From positions 1-37,641 of the forward strand of contig JAADHJ010000033.1 of assembly GCA_013151915.1 (NCBI GenBank): a stretch of 37,641 bases of DNA, in the 5' to 3' direction. How positions within the stretch are numbered: the stretch's first letter is position 1; every line of letters begins with the position of its first letter. The DNA comes from Deltaproteobacteria bacterium (lineage in GTDB: Bacteria > BMS3Abin14). Below, piece after piece: positions 2,579 to 33,175 of this stretch. Below the pieces are notes generated by a model, which did no database searches, had not been told where the DNA came from, and saw only the letters and a list, made by a program, of their open reading frames with translations. A program made the position numbers and the translations under genes.

Positions 2579-3150
2579 TGCGACTTCCTCCGTGACCGAT
2601 GCCTGCCACGTCGTAGCCTTAACGAAGACAGGTGCCTCCAGTGAGTCGCGCTGCAAACGTGACGAACGGGTGGTGAAATACTCTGCCTTGTCGCAGTGAG
2701 CCGTTCCTTCACCCCCACCTCTGTCCTCCCCCCTCGAGGGGGAGGAAGGTTTAAGGTTTCATCCGTTTCAGATGTTTGCCCTATCCCCTGTATCCCCTCC
2801 ATCCCTGTCAAATCGTGCCTTTAGATGCAATGAGGTACGCATTATTGTGATGAACCAATTAGCTTTGAAGTCGAGCGATTAAACCCGGAAGCCGTCGCCT
2901 GGCGCCCCCTCCATTTCCTGCTCCCAGGCTACCCTTCGCAGCTTCGCCTGAGATTGCTTCACATAATTATCTGTTCGCAATGACAGGAACGGGTGTCCCA
3001 GGCAATGTGCATAAACTGCGCATACGGGGAATGATTTCCTCCCTGGATGCGCAAATTGTAACCGGCACGGTCAACAGAACCATCCGTCATGCACATCTTA
3101 AAATCTGATATTATATGATATTACAACAGGTTACAACGATTTGAAAAATA
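2579..3150. other. Non-coding stretch with short dispersed repeats
   Basis: No open frame here shows protein-like composition. It contains a CTCCCCC/GGGGGAG palindrome near 2723-2748, a copy of the GGTACGCATTATTGTGATGA repeat at 2834-2857, and an ATTGCTTC...TTCGCAATGACA repeat at 2952-2985. It ends with TTGTAACC (about 3056) and GGTTACAA (about 3129), an inverted pair upstream of the sigma-54-type promoter that could be an activator site. Confidence 0.4.
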
Positions 3151-3151
3151 T

Positions 3152-3167
3152 TGGCACGGGGGTTGCT
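3152..3167 (+). promoter_or_regulatory. Sigma-54 (-24/-12) promoter
   Basis: TGGCAC at 3152-3157, five G residues, then TTGCT at 3163-3167 matches the sigma-54 consensus TGGCAC-N5-TTGCW. The invariant GG (3153-3154) and GC (3165-3166) are separated by exactly 10 nt. The expected start is near 3178. No protein-coding gene lies downstream on this strand, but a terminator does, which points to a small RNA. The inverted TTGTAACC/GGTTACAA pair upstream is a possible enhancer-binding site. Confidence 0.6.
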
Positions 3168-3177
3168 ATAATACCGA

Positions 3178-3264
3178 ACGAAGGCTCCTTTCTCACCCCG
3201 GTCGCACGGCAGCGGCAACCCTTTCTCCCCTCCTTTAACCCTGCCGAGTGACCGGGATTTTTTT
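3178..3264 (+). ncRNA. Candidate sigma-54-dependent small RNA with anti-Shine-Dalgarno segments
   Basis: The predicted transcript is about 87 nt, from the sigma-54 start to the T-run. The 5' single strand contains GGCTCCTTTCTC (3183-3194). The 28-nt terminator loop contains CCCTCCTTT (3228-3236). Both copy the anti-SD tail of 16S rRNA (ACCUCCUUU...), so the RNA could pair with AAGGAGG ribosome sites such as those of glk and the PrpF-like gene here. CU-rich loops of this kind are used by several regulatory RNAs that block translation. No long ORF or homologous protein is seen. Existence and function are inferred from promoter plus terminator. Confidence 0.5.
3197..3264 (+). terminator. Intrinsic terminator of the candidate small RNA
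   Basis: CCCGGTC (3197-3203) and CGGCAG (3207-3212) pair with CTGCCG (3241-3246) and GACCGGG (3250-3256) around a 3x3 internal loop, followed by A and seven T at 3258-3264. The T-run lies only on the plus-strand side, so this terminates plus-strand transcription and is not the end of the minus-strand glycosyltransferase operon. Confidence 0.65.
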
Positions 3265-3295
3265 GTGTTTCGCACCCCGACGCCTCGTAATCCGC

Positions 3296-4618
3296 TCACC
3301 CGATCAGCCGCCGGTACATCCTTGCAAGTGATTCGGGTCCGACTCCAAGGACGTAAAGCCAGGTGACAAGCTGGTTGACGAAGGTCACCCGGAAGGCGCC
3401 TTTCTCCCTCCACTTCCTGGCGGAGGTTACCGCAGCCTCGTCAAGTAGGACTACCCGGCCCTGCCTACGGAGGTGCCGCATCAGCTGGTAGTCTTCCATG
3501 ATGGGCTGATCAGGAAAGCCTCCGGCCAGTCTGAACGCGGGTGCCCTGACGAAGAGCGCCTGATCCCCGAAGACGATCCCCAGACGGGAGCGCCGGTTGG
3601 CGAGCCGCTCGATGATTCTCATGGCAGTGGACCGGTGATCCACCGCGAAGCGGAAGGCGCCCGCGACGACATGCTCCCGGGACATGGCTTCCCCGATGAG
3701 CCGTTCGAAACCGTCCGGCAATCTTGTATCCGCATGAAGAAACAGGAGGATATCTCCATGTGCCGCCTCGGCCCCCCGGTTCATCTGAGCGACGCGCCCG
3801 GGGTGGGAATCGACGACATGAACCTGATATGCCCGGCAGATTTCCAGGGTTCTGTCGGTACTTCCGCCGTCAGAAACGATCACCTCGACCTCGGGGACCG
3901 CTTCCAACCCTTCAAGGAGGGAACCGATCCACTCTTCCTCGTTGAAGGTAGGAATGACAATGGACAGGGTAAGTTCCCGGTGCGTCTTCGGGGTCGCAGT
4001 GACGGCCCTTTCCCAGTGGACAAGGTCCTCCGGTTCGTCCACATCGTCCAGATCGTCGAGAAGTCCGAGGTCCAGACCGGTCCCGGCCACCGCGTTGATC
4101 GTTTCCGACAGGACCTGTCCGGTGCCCCAGGAGATATTTCGAAAAACCGCATCAAAAAGCCTCTCCGGTACTTCTGACCGGATGCCGATGAGGTAGTAGC
4201 CCCCATCGGTAGACGGTCCCAGGACGATCGGGTTGTCGTCCAGAAGGATCAGGGCCTCCTCTACATGGCCCCAACCAAGTTCAGGGCAGTCTGAGCCGAT
4301 CAAGACAACCTTCCGGCAACCGTTCGCAAACGACTCCCTGAAGGCCCGCTCCATCCTGGATCCCAGGTCGCCGTCTCCCTGGGGTACATAATCCAGGCTC
4401 TCACCCAGCCAGCCCTTCATGGCCGCCATGTCCCCCCCGGAAAAGCGGACCTGTATCTCTATAACACCGCCACCGGGGGGCTGAACGGCGGCCAGCGTGT
4501 GCTCGGTCATCTCCCGATGGAGATCGGCCGCCCCCTGCTCACCGAGGACGGAGATCAGCCGGGTCTTGGCTTTCCCCGGGACCGGATATCGCGTAAAGAG
4601 GATCAGGAGAGAAGACAT
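3296..4618 (-). CDS. Fusion of DUF2064 (TIGR04282) and family 2 glycosyltransferase (TIGR04283)
   Basis: This 440-residue protein has two nucleotide-sugar-type domains. Residues 1-210 are the DUF2064/TIGR04282 domain (LILFTRYPVPGKAKTRL at the N-terminus, IGSDCPEL, GPSTDGGYYLIGI), related to CofC/MobA-like nucleotidyltransferases. Residues about 216-440 are a GT-A glycosyltransferase of the TIGR04283 type (LSIVIPTFNEE, VSDGGSTDRT, FLHADTRLPDGF, GDQALFVR, MEDYQL). Such genes are commonly found beside arsenosugar-type radical SAM genes, as here, so a role in making a glycosylated organoarsenical or related product is inferred. The gene is last in the minus-strand operon, 15 nt after the membrane-protein stop. 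The ribosome site is weak, so translation may be coupled. Confidence 0.85.
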   Translation of the reverse strand: MSSLLILFTRYPVPGKAKTRLISVLGEQGAADLHREMTEHTLAAVQPPGGGVIEIQVRFSGGDMAAMKGWLGESLDYVPQGDGDLGSRMERAFRESFANGCRKVVLIGSDCPELGWGHVEEALILLDDNPIVLGPSTDGGYYLIGIRSEVPERLFDAVFRNISWGTGQVLSETINAVAGTGLDLGLLDDLDDVDEPEDLVHWERAVTATPKTHRELTLSIVIPTFNEEEWIGSLLEGLEAVPEVEVIVSDGGSTDRTLEICRAYQVHVVDSHPGRVAQMNRGAEAAHGDILLFLHADTRLPDGFERLIGEAMSREHVVAGAFRFAVDHRSTAMRIIERLANRRSRLGIVFGDQALFVRAPAFRLAGGFPDQPIMEDYQLMRHLRRQGRVVLLDEAAVTSARKWREKGAFRVTFVNQLVTWLYVLGVGPESLARMYRRLIG

Positions 4619-6821: not shown

Positions 6822-6954
6822 GATGACTTCGCAAGGAGTCATCAAAGCGCCCACTTAAGGGTGCCCAAATCGAAGATTTGTGAGGAAAGTGAAAATGACA
6901 CTTTTCGCTTTCCGTTGAGTAAAAAGCCACGAATGGACTTTTTACGACCCTATC
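6822..6954 (+). mobile_element. GAT...ATC hairpin MITE-like element, complete short form (A2)
   Basis: This 133-bp copy starts GATGACTTCGC and ends ACGACCCTATC. It carries a terminal hairpin GATGACTT/AGTCATC, a GCGCCC-type hairpin, AAATCGAAGATTT, and GGAAAGTG...CGCTTTCC. It is non-coding; peptides such as FYSTESEKCHFHFP read from it are artefacts that recur at every copy. It lies 254 nt upstream of tal-pgi in the same orientation as that gene. Confidence 0.75.
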
Positions 6955-7208: not shown

Positions 7209-9995
7209 ATGAATAACATTCAAAAGGCCATGGAACTGGGCCAGTCCATCTGGCTCGATTATATTCGACGTTCGTTCATCACCTCGGGCGAACTTGAAGC
7301 CCTCATTGGCCAGGGGTTGATGGGAATGACCTCCAATCCGTCCATCTTCGAGAAGGCGATCACCGGCAGCTCCGATTACGACGCCGACCTGGCAAGACTT
7401 GCGGGCGAGGGGCTCACCACCGGGGAGATCTATGACGCCATAACTCTTCAGGATATCGGCATGGCCACAGACACTTTCAGGCCGGTTTACGATGCCACCG
7501 ACCAAGCCGACGGGTTCGTCAGCCTGGAGGTCAACCCCCTCCTCGCCGCCGATACCGAAAGTACCATCAGCGAGGGAGTAAGGCTATTCAACGCCCTGGG
7601 CAGGCCCAATGTCATGATCAAGGTCCCGGCCACACCCGAGGGATTTCCCGCCATCCGGACCCTCATCGGCATGGGAATAAACGTCAACGTCACCCTCATC
7701 TTTTCCGTCGGACAGTACCGTAAGGCAGCCGAAGCTTACCTGGCCGGCCTGGAAGATCTGGTATCCACCGGCGCGAAGCCGGTCACCGTCTCGTCGGTGG
7801 CCTCCCTTTTTGTCAGCCGCCTGGATACTGTTGTAGATGGAATGCTGGAGCGGATGGGGCTCGAGAATCCCCAGGGATGGACCGCCATCGCCAACGCAAA
7901 GATGGTCTATGCCGAGTTCCTCGATATCTTCAGCGGCCCCAGATGGAAAAAACTGGCTGAGGCGGGCGGGCGGGCGCAACGTCCCCTTTGGGCCAGCACC
8001 AGCACAAAAAACCCTCGCTATCCGGACACGATGTACGTGGATGAACTTCTTGGACCCCGGACAGTCAACACCCTGCCGATTGCAACTCTCCACGCTTTTC
8101 TGGACCACGGAGAGCCTGCCCTCACCCTTGCGACAGATTTCAAAGAGGCCAGGGAACACCTGAAACATATCAGGGAGCTTGGAATCAATCTGGACACCAT
8201 CATGGACACACTCCTCGCCAAAGGGATCGAAAGTTTTTCCGCTTCCTTCCGTTCCATCATGGCAGGGATTTCATCCAAGGCGGCTCAGCTCGCCGGGGGA
8301 GACAAGGCATTATGCATGGAGCTTGGGCAATACACCAAAGCCGTGGACCAAACCCTGGAAAGTATAAGGGACGACCGTGTGTTGGCGAGGATCTGGAGTC
8401 ATGACCACACAGTCTGGAAACCGGAACCTTCCGGGATCGCGGAAAGGCTTGGCTGGCTCAACTGCCCGGAAAACATGACCGGCGCGATTCCCCGGATCGA
8501 ACAGCTGGCCGACCAGGCCGGTGCCGCCGGATATACCCATGCCCTTCTTTTGGGAATGGGCGGTTCCAGTTTGGCCCCCTTCGTTTTCAGGCGGACTTTC
8601 GGGGTGGCGACAGGCCACCTCGACCTTGCGGTCCTTGACAGTACTGATCCTTCTGCGGTTCTGGAATATACCCAGCGGATGGACCCCGCGAAAACCCTCT
8701 TTATCGTCTCCACCAAATCGGGGACCACGACAGAGACCCTCTCCTTTTTCAGGTACTTTTACAACATTACCGCCATGGCGGTTGGTCCAGCCGCCGGAGA
8801 TCACTTTATCGCCATCACCGATCCGGGAAGCGCTCTGGAAAGGCTGGCATGGGAGCACGACTTTCGCCATATATTCCTGAACGATCCAAATATCGGCGGA
8901 AGATACTCGGTCCTTTCCTACTTCGGACTGGTCCCGGCCGCTCTCATCGGCATGGATGTTCACACCCTTCTCGACCAGGCGTCGAGGGTGGCCGAGAACT
9001 GCGTATCCTCCAACTGTCCCGTTGCCGGAGACAACGCCGGAGGCCGTTTGGGCGCGGCCATGGGTCATCTTGCCACGGCGGGGGTCGACAAGCTGACCAT
9101 CGTCGCGTCTCCAGCCGTCATGGCCTTTGGCGCATGGCTGGAACAGCTTCTGGCAGAGAGTACAGGCAAGGAGGGGAAGGGTATCCTCCCTGTGGATGCT
9201 GAAAGAATGGGTGAAGTGGATGTCTATGGGGATGACCGCCTTTTCGTCTACCTGAGACTTGATGGCGACGACACCCATGACGCGGCCATTGACAGGTTAT
9301 CCGGTGCCGGACACCCGGTGATCCGAATCAACATCAAGGACCTGTATGACCTGGGTGGGGAGTTCTTCCGTTGGGAGATGGCCACTGCCGTGGCCGGGCA
9401 CATCATGGGAATCAATCCGTTCGATCAACCCAATGTCGAGTCCGCCAAGATACAGGCACGCGTAATGCTTGAAGAGTTCAAGAAAGAGGGGAAACTTCCG
9501 GAACTCACACCCACCCTGGAAGAAAACGGGATGGTAGTCTATTCCAGCCGAAAATGGACTACCTTATCCGAGGCCCTGAATGGATTTTTGGCCCTCGCCC
9601 AGCCCGGAGATTACGCGGCCATTCAGGCGTACATAGCACCTACAGAGGGTTTTGCCGTGCTCCTGGATGAATTTCGCACCACGATCCGCGACCGGTGGAA
9701 GATCGCTACCACCGTTGGGTTCGGACCCAGGTTTCTCCACTCCACCGGCCAGCTGCACAAGGGGGACAGAGGCAACGGGCTGTTCATCCAGATCACGTCC
9801 GACGATACCACTGACGTTCCAATCCCCGATGAGACGGGATCGGATGTTTCAACAGTGTCCTTCGGGATCCTTAAAGCCGCCCAGGCGCTGGGTGACCGCC
9901 GGGCGCTGCTGGACGCCGGGCGCAGGGTTATCAGGTTTCACCTGACCGGGGACGTAGCCGACGGGATCCAGACACTGACGAGGGAGATTAATTGA
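7209..9995 (+). CDS. tal-pgi: Bifunctional transaldolase / glucose-6-phosphate isomerase
   Basis: This 928-residue cytosolic fusion has its two activities in order. Residues 1 to ~370 are transaldolase (MTSNPSIFEKAI near 40-51, and the Schiff-base lysine in VMIKVPATPEG, K138). Residues ~390-928 are a phosphoglucose isomerase of the short type (LLGMGGSSLAP, VSTKSGTTTETLSFFRYF, GGRYSVLSYFGL). It exchanges C3 units between sugar phosphates and interconverts glucose-6-P and fructose-6-P, linking glycolysis and the pentose phosphate route. The length is close to the ~950 residues usual for this fusion. GGAGG lies 5 nt upstream of the ATG. It converges with the small gene at 10005-10262. Confidence 0.95.
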   Translation: MNNIQKAMELGQSIWLDYIRRSFITSGELEALIGQGLMGMTSNPSIFEKAITGSSDYDADLARLAGEGLTTGEIYDAITLQDIGMATDTFRPVYDATDQADGFVSLEVNPLLAADTESTISEGVRLFNALGRPNVMIKVPATPEGFPAIRTLIGMGINVNVTLIFSVGQYRKAAEAYLAGLEDLVSTGAKPVTVSSVASLFVSRLDTVVDGMLERMGLENPQGWTAIANAKMVYAEFLDIFSGPRWKKLAEAGGRAQRPLWASTSTKNPRYPDTMYVDELLGPRTVNTLPIATLHAFLDHGEPALTLATDFKEAREHLKHIRELGINLDTIMDTLLAKGIESFSASFRSIMAGISSKAAQLAGGDKALCMELGQYTKAVDQTLESIRDDRVLARIWSHDHTVWKPEPSGIAERLGWLNCPENMTGAIPRIEQLADQAGAAGYTHALLLGMGGSSLAPFVFRRTFGVATGHLDLAVLDSTDPSAVLEYTQRMDPAKTLFIVSTKSGTTTETLSFFRYFYNITAMAVGPAAGDHFIAITDPGSALERLAWEHDFRHIFLNDPNIGGRYSVLSYFGLVPAALIGMDVHTLLDQASRVAENCVSSNCPVAGDNAGGRLGAAMGHLATAGVDKLTIVASPAVMAFGAWLEQLLAESTGKEGKGILPVDAERMGEVDVYGDDRLFVYLRLDGDDTHDAAIDRLSGAGHPVIRINIKDLYDLGGEFFRWEMATAVAGHIMGINPFDQPNVESAKIQARVMLEEFKKEGKLPELTPTLEENGMVVYSSRKWTTLSEALNGFLALAQPGDYAAIQAYIAPTEGFAVLLDEFRTTIRDRWKIATTVGFGPRFLHSTGQLHKGDRGNGLFIQITSDDTTDVPIPDETGSDVSTVSFGILKAAQALGDRRALLDAGRRVIRFHLTGDVADGIQTLTREIN

Positions 9996-17921: not shown

Positions 17922-18063
17922 ATATACTTCAACAATCCTGATAACGGTCCATTTGCGGATAATGTCATGATCAGTATCTCCCGGGCGCCTCTTCTCTTCA
18001 CTGATTGGAACCTTGACAATCCAACCTTTTCATGAGAAGCAACTTTCATATGATATAGGTCGA

Positions 18064-18148
18064 CCTGCGTTAGGGGTGCTCGGGTTTCCGGGCTGAGAAT
18101 AAACCCTTACGAACCTGATCTGGATAATGCCAGCGAAGGGAAACGGAA
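18064..18148 (+). promoter_or_regulatory. TPP riboswitch (THI-box) aptamer
   Basis: This is the canonical thiamin pyrophosphate aptamer: GGGGTGC, then CCGGGCTGAGA, ACCCTTACGAACCTGATCT, GGATAATGCCAGCG and AAGGGAA in the right order and spacing. TPP binding should lower expression of the thi genes downstream. A terminator sits between the aptamer and thiG, so control is probably transcriptional. Confidence 0.95.
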
Positions 18149-18181
18149 TCAGATACACCTGATTAACGGTGATTTATTTGG

Positions 18182-18211: not shown

Positions 18212-18256
18212 ATGCCGAAAAGAAATCGGGGTCTTTCGGGACCCGAGAGGGTGACG

Positions 18257-31396: not shown

Positions 31397-33175
31397 TTAT
31401 TGTGCTGAACCTAAAGATAAGGCCTCTTCCGCACATTGGGTGACACAGGCATTACACGCAAAACATTCCAACTGTTTTTGAATTCTGATCCTGCTTTTAT
31501 CTATAATCCCAAATACGCCTTTCGGACAAACCATAAAACAGACCCGGCAATTATTACATCTATTTACATCCTGGCGAATTCTTCCAGAGCTAAAGGCTTC
31601 GGCTGAAAAAATATGCCCGAAAGAGGCCATTCCAAGTTTATGCATTAACCATTCGGCCTCTGACGGGTTGCCTGCCACAATGCCTCTCAAATCGAAGCCA
31701 AACCAGATGTTTATTACACTGACTATTATCATTGTTTTCCAATGGCTGAATACAGGCATGTTCAATATAAAAATGGAAAACATAGAGATCAAGATGACTT
31801 CTATTCCGGATAAGACAGCTGCTTTGAGCCAGCCACTTTTCCCCGGGATTAAAGGAAATCCGGCATAAAGCATAAAGCCCGTTATCCAGAAAAAGGCGCT
31901 GAGGGAGAAAAACATATCTGGTTTTATTAACAACGTACTTATTCCCATTACAATCCAGACAATGAAGTTCATTGAAAGCAGCATTTCCAACCTGAATAAT
32001 AAAGGGAACTCGGCTTTGTTATGCTCAAATACTATTTTACGGTTTTTTAAGAACAAAGGAATGTTTTTAGAATATGCCGGACCGAAAAGTCCAGTTCGTC
32101 CTGTCTCTTTCTTAAGAAGGTTGCAGTCAATACCCGGCGCTGAAAATTGCGGCAGAATAATTTTATGGTGATCAACTCTTTCATTAATTCGGCTCGTTTT
32201 AATAATCGTTATTACTGAATGCGCGTTTAATTCTCCCCCACAAGATGCACACCATACATTAATACCGTTTGCAGGTGCCACCAGCAGGAAAACATTTTCA
32301 CCTTTTAATGATCTCTCAACCCGTCGTACAGTAAGATGAAAATTACTGGTAAGAATCACAGGTGAGTTTCTGTCCGGCTTGCCTATGATTCGAAGGCCCG
32401 GTTCAACGGGATTTGGAAACCAGCGACCGATAAAATCCCATACGGATTTAATAAGTGAAAAATCATCTTTCGGTTTGCCTGCTCCGGGCAATACAGTTTC
32501 ATCGGGGTTGTCATCCGCTGGTTTTTGGGCCGAAAGCACAATGAAGCTATCCAGGAATGAACGACTCTCCCCGATGATGGTTAAGCCTGATTCACTTATT
32601 TCTTCCGAAATTCCAGGTATTGCTTTTGTACCGGTTTGGGCAATGACATAGGTCAAAATGATTAAAGGGAAACGAACTAAGAAGTGGATTATCCTTTTTA
32701 GTGGTTTTTCAGGCTGAACTTCTGCGGCAATTACAAGCATGCCGTTCGGTTTCAATAATCTCTTGATCTGATTTAACGTTAATGCTCTTTCTTCAGCATA
32801 GAGTTCACTGAAAACAAGAGTCGATACAATCAGATCGAAACTATTTTCATCAAAAATCGAACCTATTTCAGCAGCCCCGGCATTATGAAGGGTAATCCTA
32901 TCCTGCATCCCACTGTTGGCAATCTGTTTTCGAGCGACCGCTAACATTCCAGTTGATATATCCACGCCTGTTGTGATAGCTCCTGCCTTTGCAGCATCTA
33001 TAATCAGTGAGCCCGTTCCACAACCGATATCAAGTATTTCCATGCGAGGTTTTACGTGAAGTTGTACAATTTCCCTTCTGATCTTTTTTGCGTGGCCCAA
33101 CGAAAGAATATTAATGCCCTTATCATAACGTTCGGGCCGGTTCTCAAGTATTTTCATGAAGACATAAGAAAACAT
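31397..33175 (-). CDS. Fusion: SAM methyltransferase + HgcA-like corrinoid domain + TM + HgcB-like ferredoxin
   Basis: This is a 592-residue protein. Residues ~20-215 are a class I SAM methyltransferase (motif I EILDIGCGTGS, 47-56; LLKPNGMLVIAAE, about 140-152). Residues ~260-380 resemble the corrinoid domain of mercury-methylating HgcA: PVILTSNFHLTVRRVERSL, VAPANGINVWC with the cap Cys309, HHKIILPQFSAPGID and GLFGPAYSKNIPLFLK. The usual WC(A/S)(A/S)GK continues here as WCASCGGE, adding Cys312. About four TM helices span 394-495. The C-terminus is a 2x[4Fe-4S] ferredoxin (Cys540, 543, 546, 550 and 571, 574, 577, 581), like HgcB. HgcAB-like fusions are known but their substrate is not. The tail GSAQ-stop lies in a dispersed repeat. 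AT-rich. Confidence 0.85.
   Translation of the reverse strand: MFSYVFMKILENRPERYDKGINILSLGHAKKIRREIVQLHVKPRMEILDIGCGTGSLIIDAAKAGAITTGVDISTGMLAVARKQIANSGMQDRITLHNAGAAEIGSIFDENSFDLIVSTLVFSELYAEERALTLNQIKRLLKPNGMLVIAAEVQPEKPLKRIIHFLVRFPLIILTYVIAQTGTKAIPGISEEISESGLTIIGESRSFLDSFIVLSAQKPADDNPDETVLPGAGKPKDDFSLIKSVWDFIGRWFPNPVEPGLRIIGKPDRNSPVILTSNFHLTVRRVERSLKGENVFLLVAPANGINVWCASCGGELNAHSVITIIKTSRINERVDHHKIILPQFSAPGIDCNLLKKETGRTGLFGPAYSKNIPLFLKNRKIVFEHNKAEFPLLFRLEMLLSMNFIVWIVMGISTLLIKPDMFFSLSAFFWITGFMLYAGFPLIPGKSGWLKAAVLSGIEVILISMFSIFILNMPVFSHWKTMIIVSVINIWFGFDLRGIVAGNPSEAEWLMHKLGMASFGHIFSAEAFSSGRIRQDVNRCNNCRVCFMVCPKGVFGIIDKSRIRIQKQLECFACNACVTQCAEEALSLGSAQ

What the first reader, a model, noticed from the sequence alone, without database searches (positions are those of the whole stretch)
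3152..3264. Sigma-54-driven ~87-nt RNA with two anti-Shine-Dalgarno segments
A near-perfect -24/-12 promoter is followed, with no ORF, by a transcript ending in a strong terminator. CTCCTTTCT in the 5' strand and CCCTCCTTT in the terminator loop both mimic the 16S rRNA 3' tail. Several genes in this window use AAAGGAGG. A nitrogen- or stress-linked regulator acting on many ribosome sites is plausible.
Basis: partly seen in the sequence, partly recalled or inferred. Interest (0 to 1): 0.8.

Follow-up and report, generated by a model that had tools for sequence, protein, structure and literature searches.

The report
Sigma-54-driven pyrimidine-loop small RNA
A short stretch between two genes most likely makes a small regulatory RNA, switched on by the sigma-54 transcription machinery and preserved almost letter for letter in related bacteria, whose C/U-rich parts look made to cover the ribosome-binding sites of messenger RNAs; which messengers it controls is not yet known.

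Summary
At 3151-3264 there is a perfect -24/-12 element, a predicted start at 3178, no conserved ORF, and a strong hairpin ending in seven Ts. Eight copies exist in 7 of 12 genomes of the phylum (one family). All keep the -24/-12 promoter. The 16-nt 5' segment GAAGGCTCCTTTCTCA and most of a 23-24-nt C/U-rich terminator loop do not vary, whereas stems vary compensatorily and flanks are unrelated. Upstream lie activator-like sites (TGCGC-N7-GCGCA), usually paired. Six copies sit upstream of an outer-membrane-protein/aminotransferase/serA cluster; two, including the window's, stand alone beside a convergent gene, so this is an RNA gene and not a leader. No Hfq was found in the 12 genomes. Best explanation: a new Hfq-independent sRNA that masks Shine-Dalgarno regions, under a dedicated enhancer-binding protein. 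The gene and promoter class are well supported. Anti-SD action is inferred: no conserved target was established, the activator is unidentified, the nitrogen link is unproven, and transcription was not tested. Resemblance to rhizobial NfeR1 and myxobacterial Pxr is functional only.

The parts
3006..3022 (+). Distal upstream activator-like site TGTGCATAAACTGCGCA (TGCGC-N7-GCGCA, 9 of 10)
   Evidence: 8 of 8 copies have a site with at least 8/10 at -150 to -70; shuffles average 1.0 of 8 copies, maximum 5
3048..3064 (+). Proximal activator-like site, only one half well matched (TGCGCAAATTGTAACCG); shared with copy G001b; fuller matches near -93 in most of the other copies
   Evidence: alignment; inferred
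3151..3167 (+). Sigma-54 (-24/-12) promoter TTGGCACGGGGGTTGCT
   Evidence: TTGGCA and TTGC kept in 8 of 8 copies
3178..3264 (+). Predicted small RNA, about 87 nt
   Evidence: start from promoter spacing, end from the T-run; no transcript data
3180..3195 (+). Invariant 5' segment GAAGGCTCCTTTCTCA (anti-SD-like segment 1, weak 5-pair mini-hairpin)
   Evidence: 16 of 16 columns invariant in 8 copies; copies were located by this string, but it is also invariant in the blastn-found alignment
3197..3256 (+). Terminator hairpin with long stem; arms vary compensatorily
3216..3238 (+). C/U-rich loop CAACCCTTTCTCCCCTCCTTTAA (anti-SD-like segment 2)
   Evidence: ACCCTTTCTCCCCTCC invariant in 8 copies; the A-run before it and the T/A run after it vary
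3257..3264 (+). AT tail of the intrinsic terminator (T-run 3258-3264)

Best explanation
A stand-alone sRNA gene. An unidentified enhancer-binding protein binds one or two palindromic sites about 95-145 bp upstream, DNA bending (IHF-like site in most relatives) brings it to sigma-54 polymerase at TTGGCA/TTGC, and an ~87-nt RNA is made, ending at its own terminator. The unpaired 5' segment (CUCCUUUCUC) and the large terminator loop (CCCUUUCUCCCCUCCUUU) pair, without Hfq, with purine-rich Shine-Dalgarno regions of a set of mRNAs and block translation. Shown by sequence comparison: promoter conservation, RNA conservation, structure, independence from neighbours, no detectable Hfq. Inferred: transcription, the activator, pairing, targets, repression.
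For: 8 copies in 7 of 12 phylum genomes; promoter kept in all, spacing to RNA 28-29 nt; segment 1 16/16 invariant, loop core invariant, flanks 25-27% identical; same fold in all 8 copies, with two predicted pairs changed on both sides; conservation starts at the predicted +2/+3; site pairs at about -133 and -93 in context A; whole unit also found away from the serA cluster; no ORF shared between copies; Hfq in 0 of 12 genomes, 5 of 14 controls positive; GGA occurs only at the hairpin's 3' base, so not a CsrA sponge; NfeR1 precedent: repeated invariant aSD seeds in unpaired regions with variable stems, Hfq-independent (PMC10746234 passages).
Against: No conserved target: a 20-mer complement of the loop, up to 3 mismatches, finds only the RNA genes and 3 non-conserved places in 7 genomes. 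Candidate target segments drift: GAGAAAGG at the hydrogenase small-subunit start in 3 of 8 genomes where the start was readable. Any C/U-rich RNA will pair with SD regions, so pairing energies are weak evidence. No expression data. The window copy lacks the IHF-like site at the shared place and has only a half proximal site. Own 16S tail not read. Activator unknown among about 20 PF00158 matches per genome.
Confidence: 0.66

Rival explanations
1. Protein-binding (titrating) RNA: the invariant pyrimidine segments bind and sequester a C/U-binding protein (cold-shock type, S1-like or other), as CrcZ does to Hfq, rather than pairing with mRNAs.
For: Invariance extends beyond a typical 6-8 nt seed and no conserved target was found; sigma-54-driven titrating RNAs exist (CrcZ: recalled; start of one abstract seen in the listing).
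Against: No Hfq and no CsrA-type GGA in loops; the segments hold 9-, 8- and 7-nt matches to the recalled anti-SD tail.
Confidence: 0.18
2. Leader/attenuator of the downstream operon (outer-membrane protein, aminotransferase, serA, hisZ, purA): sigma-54 transcription mostly stops at the terminator and some reads on.
For: 6 of 8 copies lie just upstream and on the same strand as this cluster.
Against: The other two copies (window, G001b) face a convergent gene yet keep site, promoter, RNA and terminator; distance from RNA to the first gene varies from about 80 to several hundred nt, with unrelated sequence; no alternative antiterminator helix was evident in the predicted folds.
Confidence: 0.08
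3. Sponge for another, purine-rich regulatory RNA.
For: C/U-rich invariant segments could pair with a GA-rich sRNA; not excluded by any search.
Against: No such RNA seen; the near-full 20-nt complement occurs only at the gene itself and 3 unconserved places.
Confidence: 0.05
4. Not expressed; a chance promoter and hairpin.
For: No transcript data; promoter pattern hits genome-wide at 1 mismatch do not exceed controls.
Against: Block-wise invariance bounded by predicted start and terminator in 8 copies.
Confidence: 0.03

Closest known systems
alpha-r14 family / NfeR1 (rhizobia)
   Same: Several copies of an ultraconserved anti-SD motif in unpaired regions, stems variable, Hfq-independent (PMC10746234 passages)
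   Different: Motif CCUCCUCCC in three hairpins; promoter without sigma-54 signature, activated by LsrB and repressed by NtrC; here CUCCUUUCUC / CCCUUUCUCCCCUCCUUU, one main hairpin, sigma-54 promoter; no Rfam family matched
Pxr (myxobacteria)
   Same: About 100-nt sRNA with an upstream sigma-54 promoter in bacteria without an Hfq homologue; paralogous copies exist (PMC5568312, PMC5684412 passages)
   Different: Three stem-loops, gene downstream of the regulator nla19; here two hairpins and no activator gene nearby; sequences not compared, Pxr sequence not at hand
Sigma-54-controlled sRNAs Qrr, GlmY/GlmZ, CrcZ, NrsZ
   Same: Sigma-54 promoter with upstream activator sites, sometimes IHF (recalled)
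   Different: Mostly Hfq-linked, other motifs (recalled); no Rfam family matched here
RsaE/RoxS-type C-rich sRNAs (Firmicutes)
   Same: C-rich single-stranded seeds that cover SD regions (recalled; a RoxS paper seen in the listing only)
   Different: Different promoter class, motif and phylum (recalled); no Rfam match

Membership tests
Sigma-54-dependent transcription units | -24/-12 element with consensus TGGCAC-N5-TTGC | tested here: met
   window exact; 8 of 8 copies keep TTGGCA-N6-TTGC
Sigma-54-dependent transcription units | Enhancer-binding-protein site(s) upstream | tested here: met
   palindromic site in 8 of 8 copies against shuffled mean 1.0; binding itself not testable
Sigma-54-dependent transcription units | Loss of transcription without rpoN | not testable with these tools
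   experiment
NtrC regulon | TGCAC-N7-GTGCA (recalled) or TGC-N11-GCA sites and nitrogen control | tested here: inconclusive
   17-bp geometry fits TGC-N11-GCA (motif as quoted in PMC10746234) but the half-site is TGYGC, and no NtrC-consensus site at 9/10 lay upstream of 21 examined sigma-54-like sites
alpha-r14 / NfeR1 | Three hairpins each with CCUCCUCCC | tested here: not met
   sequence and folds; motif CCUCCUCCC absent
Pxr | Sequence homology and three stem-loops | tested here: inconclusive
   two hairpins predicted here; Pxr sequence not compared
Any Rfam 15 family | Score at or above gathering threshold | tested here: not met
   only a TPP riboswitch elsewhere in the window; best sub-threshold match within the RNA 16.5 bits against 50
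Anti-SD trans-acting sRNAs (functional class) | Single-stranded motif complementary to SD | tested here: met
   (tail recalled, own 16S not read)
Anti-SD trans-acting sRNAs (functional class) | Demonstrated mRNA targets | tested here: inconclusive
   no conserved target established
Hfq-dependent sRNAs | Hfq present in the genome | tested here: not met
   0 of 12 genomes, several incomplete

The most novel reading that the evidence does not exclude
A phylum-wide riboregulator wired to one dedicated enhancer-binding protein whose site occurs almost only at this gene, acting without Hfq as a multi-seed mask of Shine-Dalgarno regions on an energy/redox set of mRNAs (weak leads: [NiFe] hydrogenase subunits, ATP synthase c, glutamate dehydrogenase, serA), with the intrinsic terminator loop itself used as the main seed.
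Probability: 0.2. Interest if true: 0.72.

Novelty: new member of a known kind. Interest (0 to 1): 0.52.

Why it matters
It would be a new sRNA family, in a phylum without detectable Hfq, with a promoter, activator sites and seeds all readable from the DNA. It joins two things that the papers seen here describe apart: sigma-54 control (Pxr) and repeated invariant anti-SD seeds (NfeR1). It offers a clean case for asking how a C/U-rich RNA picks targets when nearly every mRNA carries a partial match.

Tried and rejected
Considered and rejected: small ORF (no ORF shared by the copies); CsrA sponge (GGA only at hairpin base); operon leader (context B); phage origin (20 exact 15-mer hits in viral contigs, none followed by the rest of the RNA); a homologue outside the phylum (G238, 25 bits: the stretch shows neither the loop core nor a -24/-12 element). 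Upstream-site hits TACGCATAACTTACGCA were set aside as LexA-type sites near lexA/polymerase IV-like genes (names recognised by eye).

Led nowhere: (genome contigs, one weak hit, organism not identified); the activator (no site at 9/10 convincingly next to an activator gene; none upstream of other sigma-54-like sites, one weak 8/10 at L078); targets: GAGAAAGG-N3-14-ATG gave 257 matches against 132 reversed controls in 7 genomes, the listing being cut off before G004, G005 and G009. Of 20 hits that I chose from that listing and fetched as regions, 5 opened an ORF of at least 100 aa from that ATG: L201, L202, L204, L208, L213; orthologues of each other only for ATP synthase c (L202 in G000, L213 in G001). 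Among the 30 automatic loci, the hydrogenase small subunit recurred (L178, L188) but the segment drifts. Group energies put the hydrogenase large subunit first of 24 groups; this set is biased by how loci were fetched and by its strong SD. In one search the top row (L020) is the RNA gene's own antisense and was disregarded. Alignments used wrong strands or ranges and were replaced.

Full report
Observation. The window is part of contig 33 of a 2.27-Mb draft genome, 60 contigs. Between two minus-strand ORFs (1490-2284, HARE-HTH domain; 3296-4618, DUF2064 plus glycosyltransferase 2) lies a 1-kb gap. In it, TTGGCACGGGGGTTGCT (3151-3167) is an exact sigma-54 element. Genome-wide the looser pattern TTGGCACNNNNNTTGCW gives 3 exact hits in this genome; at up to 1 mismatch hits (17) do not exceed reversed-pattern controls (18), so promoter matches alone would not carry the case. 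The RNA 3178-3270 folds with z -4.0.

Conservation. blastn found further copies in 6 of 60 relatives, 7 places: G001 twice, G002, G003, G004, G005, G009 (the other hits there are short and weak). A covariance model from these 8 copies finds 8 copies in 7 of the 12 genomes of the phylum, which is one family, and in 386 genomes nothing else credible (G238 at 25 bits has no promoter or loop core). In the 8 copies TTGGCA and TTGC are kept while most spacer letters change; the 16-nt segment 1 is 16/16 invariant; the loop core ACCCTTTCTCCCCTCC is invariant; the stretch between -12 and the RNA is 40% identical, upstream -250 to -160 25% (7 copies, one with masked bases left out) and downstream 27%. 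The stem changes on both sides in places (2 of 20 predicted pairs) and every copy folds alike.

Absence in five genomes (G006, G007, G008, G010, G011) is not informative: the aminotransferase next to the ancestral site is at a contig edge (G010), partial (G011), found only as a distant paralogue (G006, G008) or not found (G007). Of the 8 genomes with the full gene, two (G000, G010) have the contig start close upstream; in all 6 others the RNA lies upstream.

Context. Context A (6 copies): RNA, then on the same strand a secreted beta-barrel-like protein (Phenol_MetA_deg above cut-off in G002, weaker in two others at E up to 1, none at 1e-3 in the two), class-V aminotransferase, serA and in most hisZ and purA. 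In G003 the region is partly masked. Context B (window, G001 second copy): beside the DUF2064/glycosyltransferase gene, which is convergent. G001 holds both. So the unit of activator sites, promoter, RNA and terminator occurs as a whole in a second place, which fits a trans-acting RNA gene.

Control. Upstream of all 8 copies lies at least one 17-bp palindrome TGCGC-N7-GCGCA with 8 or more of 10 letters, against a shuffled mean of 1.0 copies. In context A sites fall at about -133 and -93 from TTGGCA (some below the 8/10 mark); in the window at -145 (full) and -103 (half). An IHF-like site at -29 reaches 8/9 in 5 of 6 context A copies, not in context B; shuffles give 1.2 copies on average, at most 5, so this is suggestive only, apart from the fixed position. 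A genome search for the activator site at 1 mismatch returned 8 places in 7 genomes, 4 of them at this gene. Geometry equals NtrC's, half-site differs, so a nitrogen role is possible but unproven. There are 21 and 20 PF00158 matches in G000 and G001, none on the contigs carrying the RNA.

Function. Hfq (PF17209) was found in 0 of 12 genomes. The unpaired segments contain CUCCUUUCU, CCUUUCU and CCUCCUUU. A Shine-Dalgarno-masking sRNA is the most economical reading, after NfeR1 (passages of PMC10746234), with Pxr as precedent for sigma-54 control without Hfq (passages of PMC5568312 and PMC5684412). Targets remain open: the long loop complement is not conserved anywhere else; energy ranking of 361 start regions and 24 orthologue groups among 571 gives only weak leads (hydrogenase subunits, serA, a class II aldolase-like gene, ATP synthase c by Pfam, glutamate dehydrogenase in G009; names other than ATP synthase c and serA recognised by eye).

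Literature. Searches on sigma-54 with small RNA and anti-Shine-Dalgarno and sigma-54 with Deltaproteobacteria or Geobacter small RNAs listed no description of this RNA; that is a limited search of open papers, by listing only. Passages of PMC4414408 were also seen: there a predicted sigma-54 promoter of the sRNA EcpR1 proved non-functional, a warning that such a match needs an experiment. The organism's name was not determined.

Noticed in passing
window 31397-33175 (-): One 592-aa ORF joins a CpaM-type methyltransferase (NF043040) with an HgcAB-like corrinoid/ferredoxin fusion (NF043039), both above cut-off, with NVWCASC in the cap-helix place (cap-helix motif recalled). A one-chain methyltransferase plus HgcAB-like protein may be worth its own study.
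   Followed up: partly
window 18062-18158 (+): TPP riboswitch (RF00059, 68 bits) ahead of thiG at 18212.
   Followed up: no
window 6884-6913 and L150 (G000 contig 11, near its start): The same stem-loop sequence GGAAAGTGAAAATGACACTTTTCGCTTTCC occurs at both places: perhaps a dispersed repeat.
   Followed up: no
window 27553, 29021, 31028 (+): AAAGGAGG sites not followed by a start codon, two in TTTTAAAGGAGG settings.
   Followed up: no
L113 (G004), L114 (G005), L112 (G001): TTGACTTACGCATAACTTACGCATAT-like direct repeats ahead of lexA / polymerase IV-like genes: a possible SOS box of this phylum.
   Followed up: no
L228-L234, L236: [NiFe] hydrogenase small subunit has an unusual GAAAGGGGGA-type SD in several genomes; GAGAAAGGGGGA in G003, G005, G009.
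   Followed up: partly
window 7209-9995 (+): Transaldolase and phosphoglucose isomerase domains in one 928-aa ORF.
   Followed up: no
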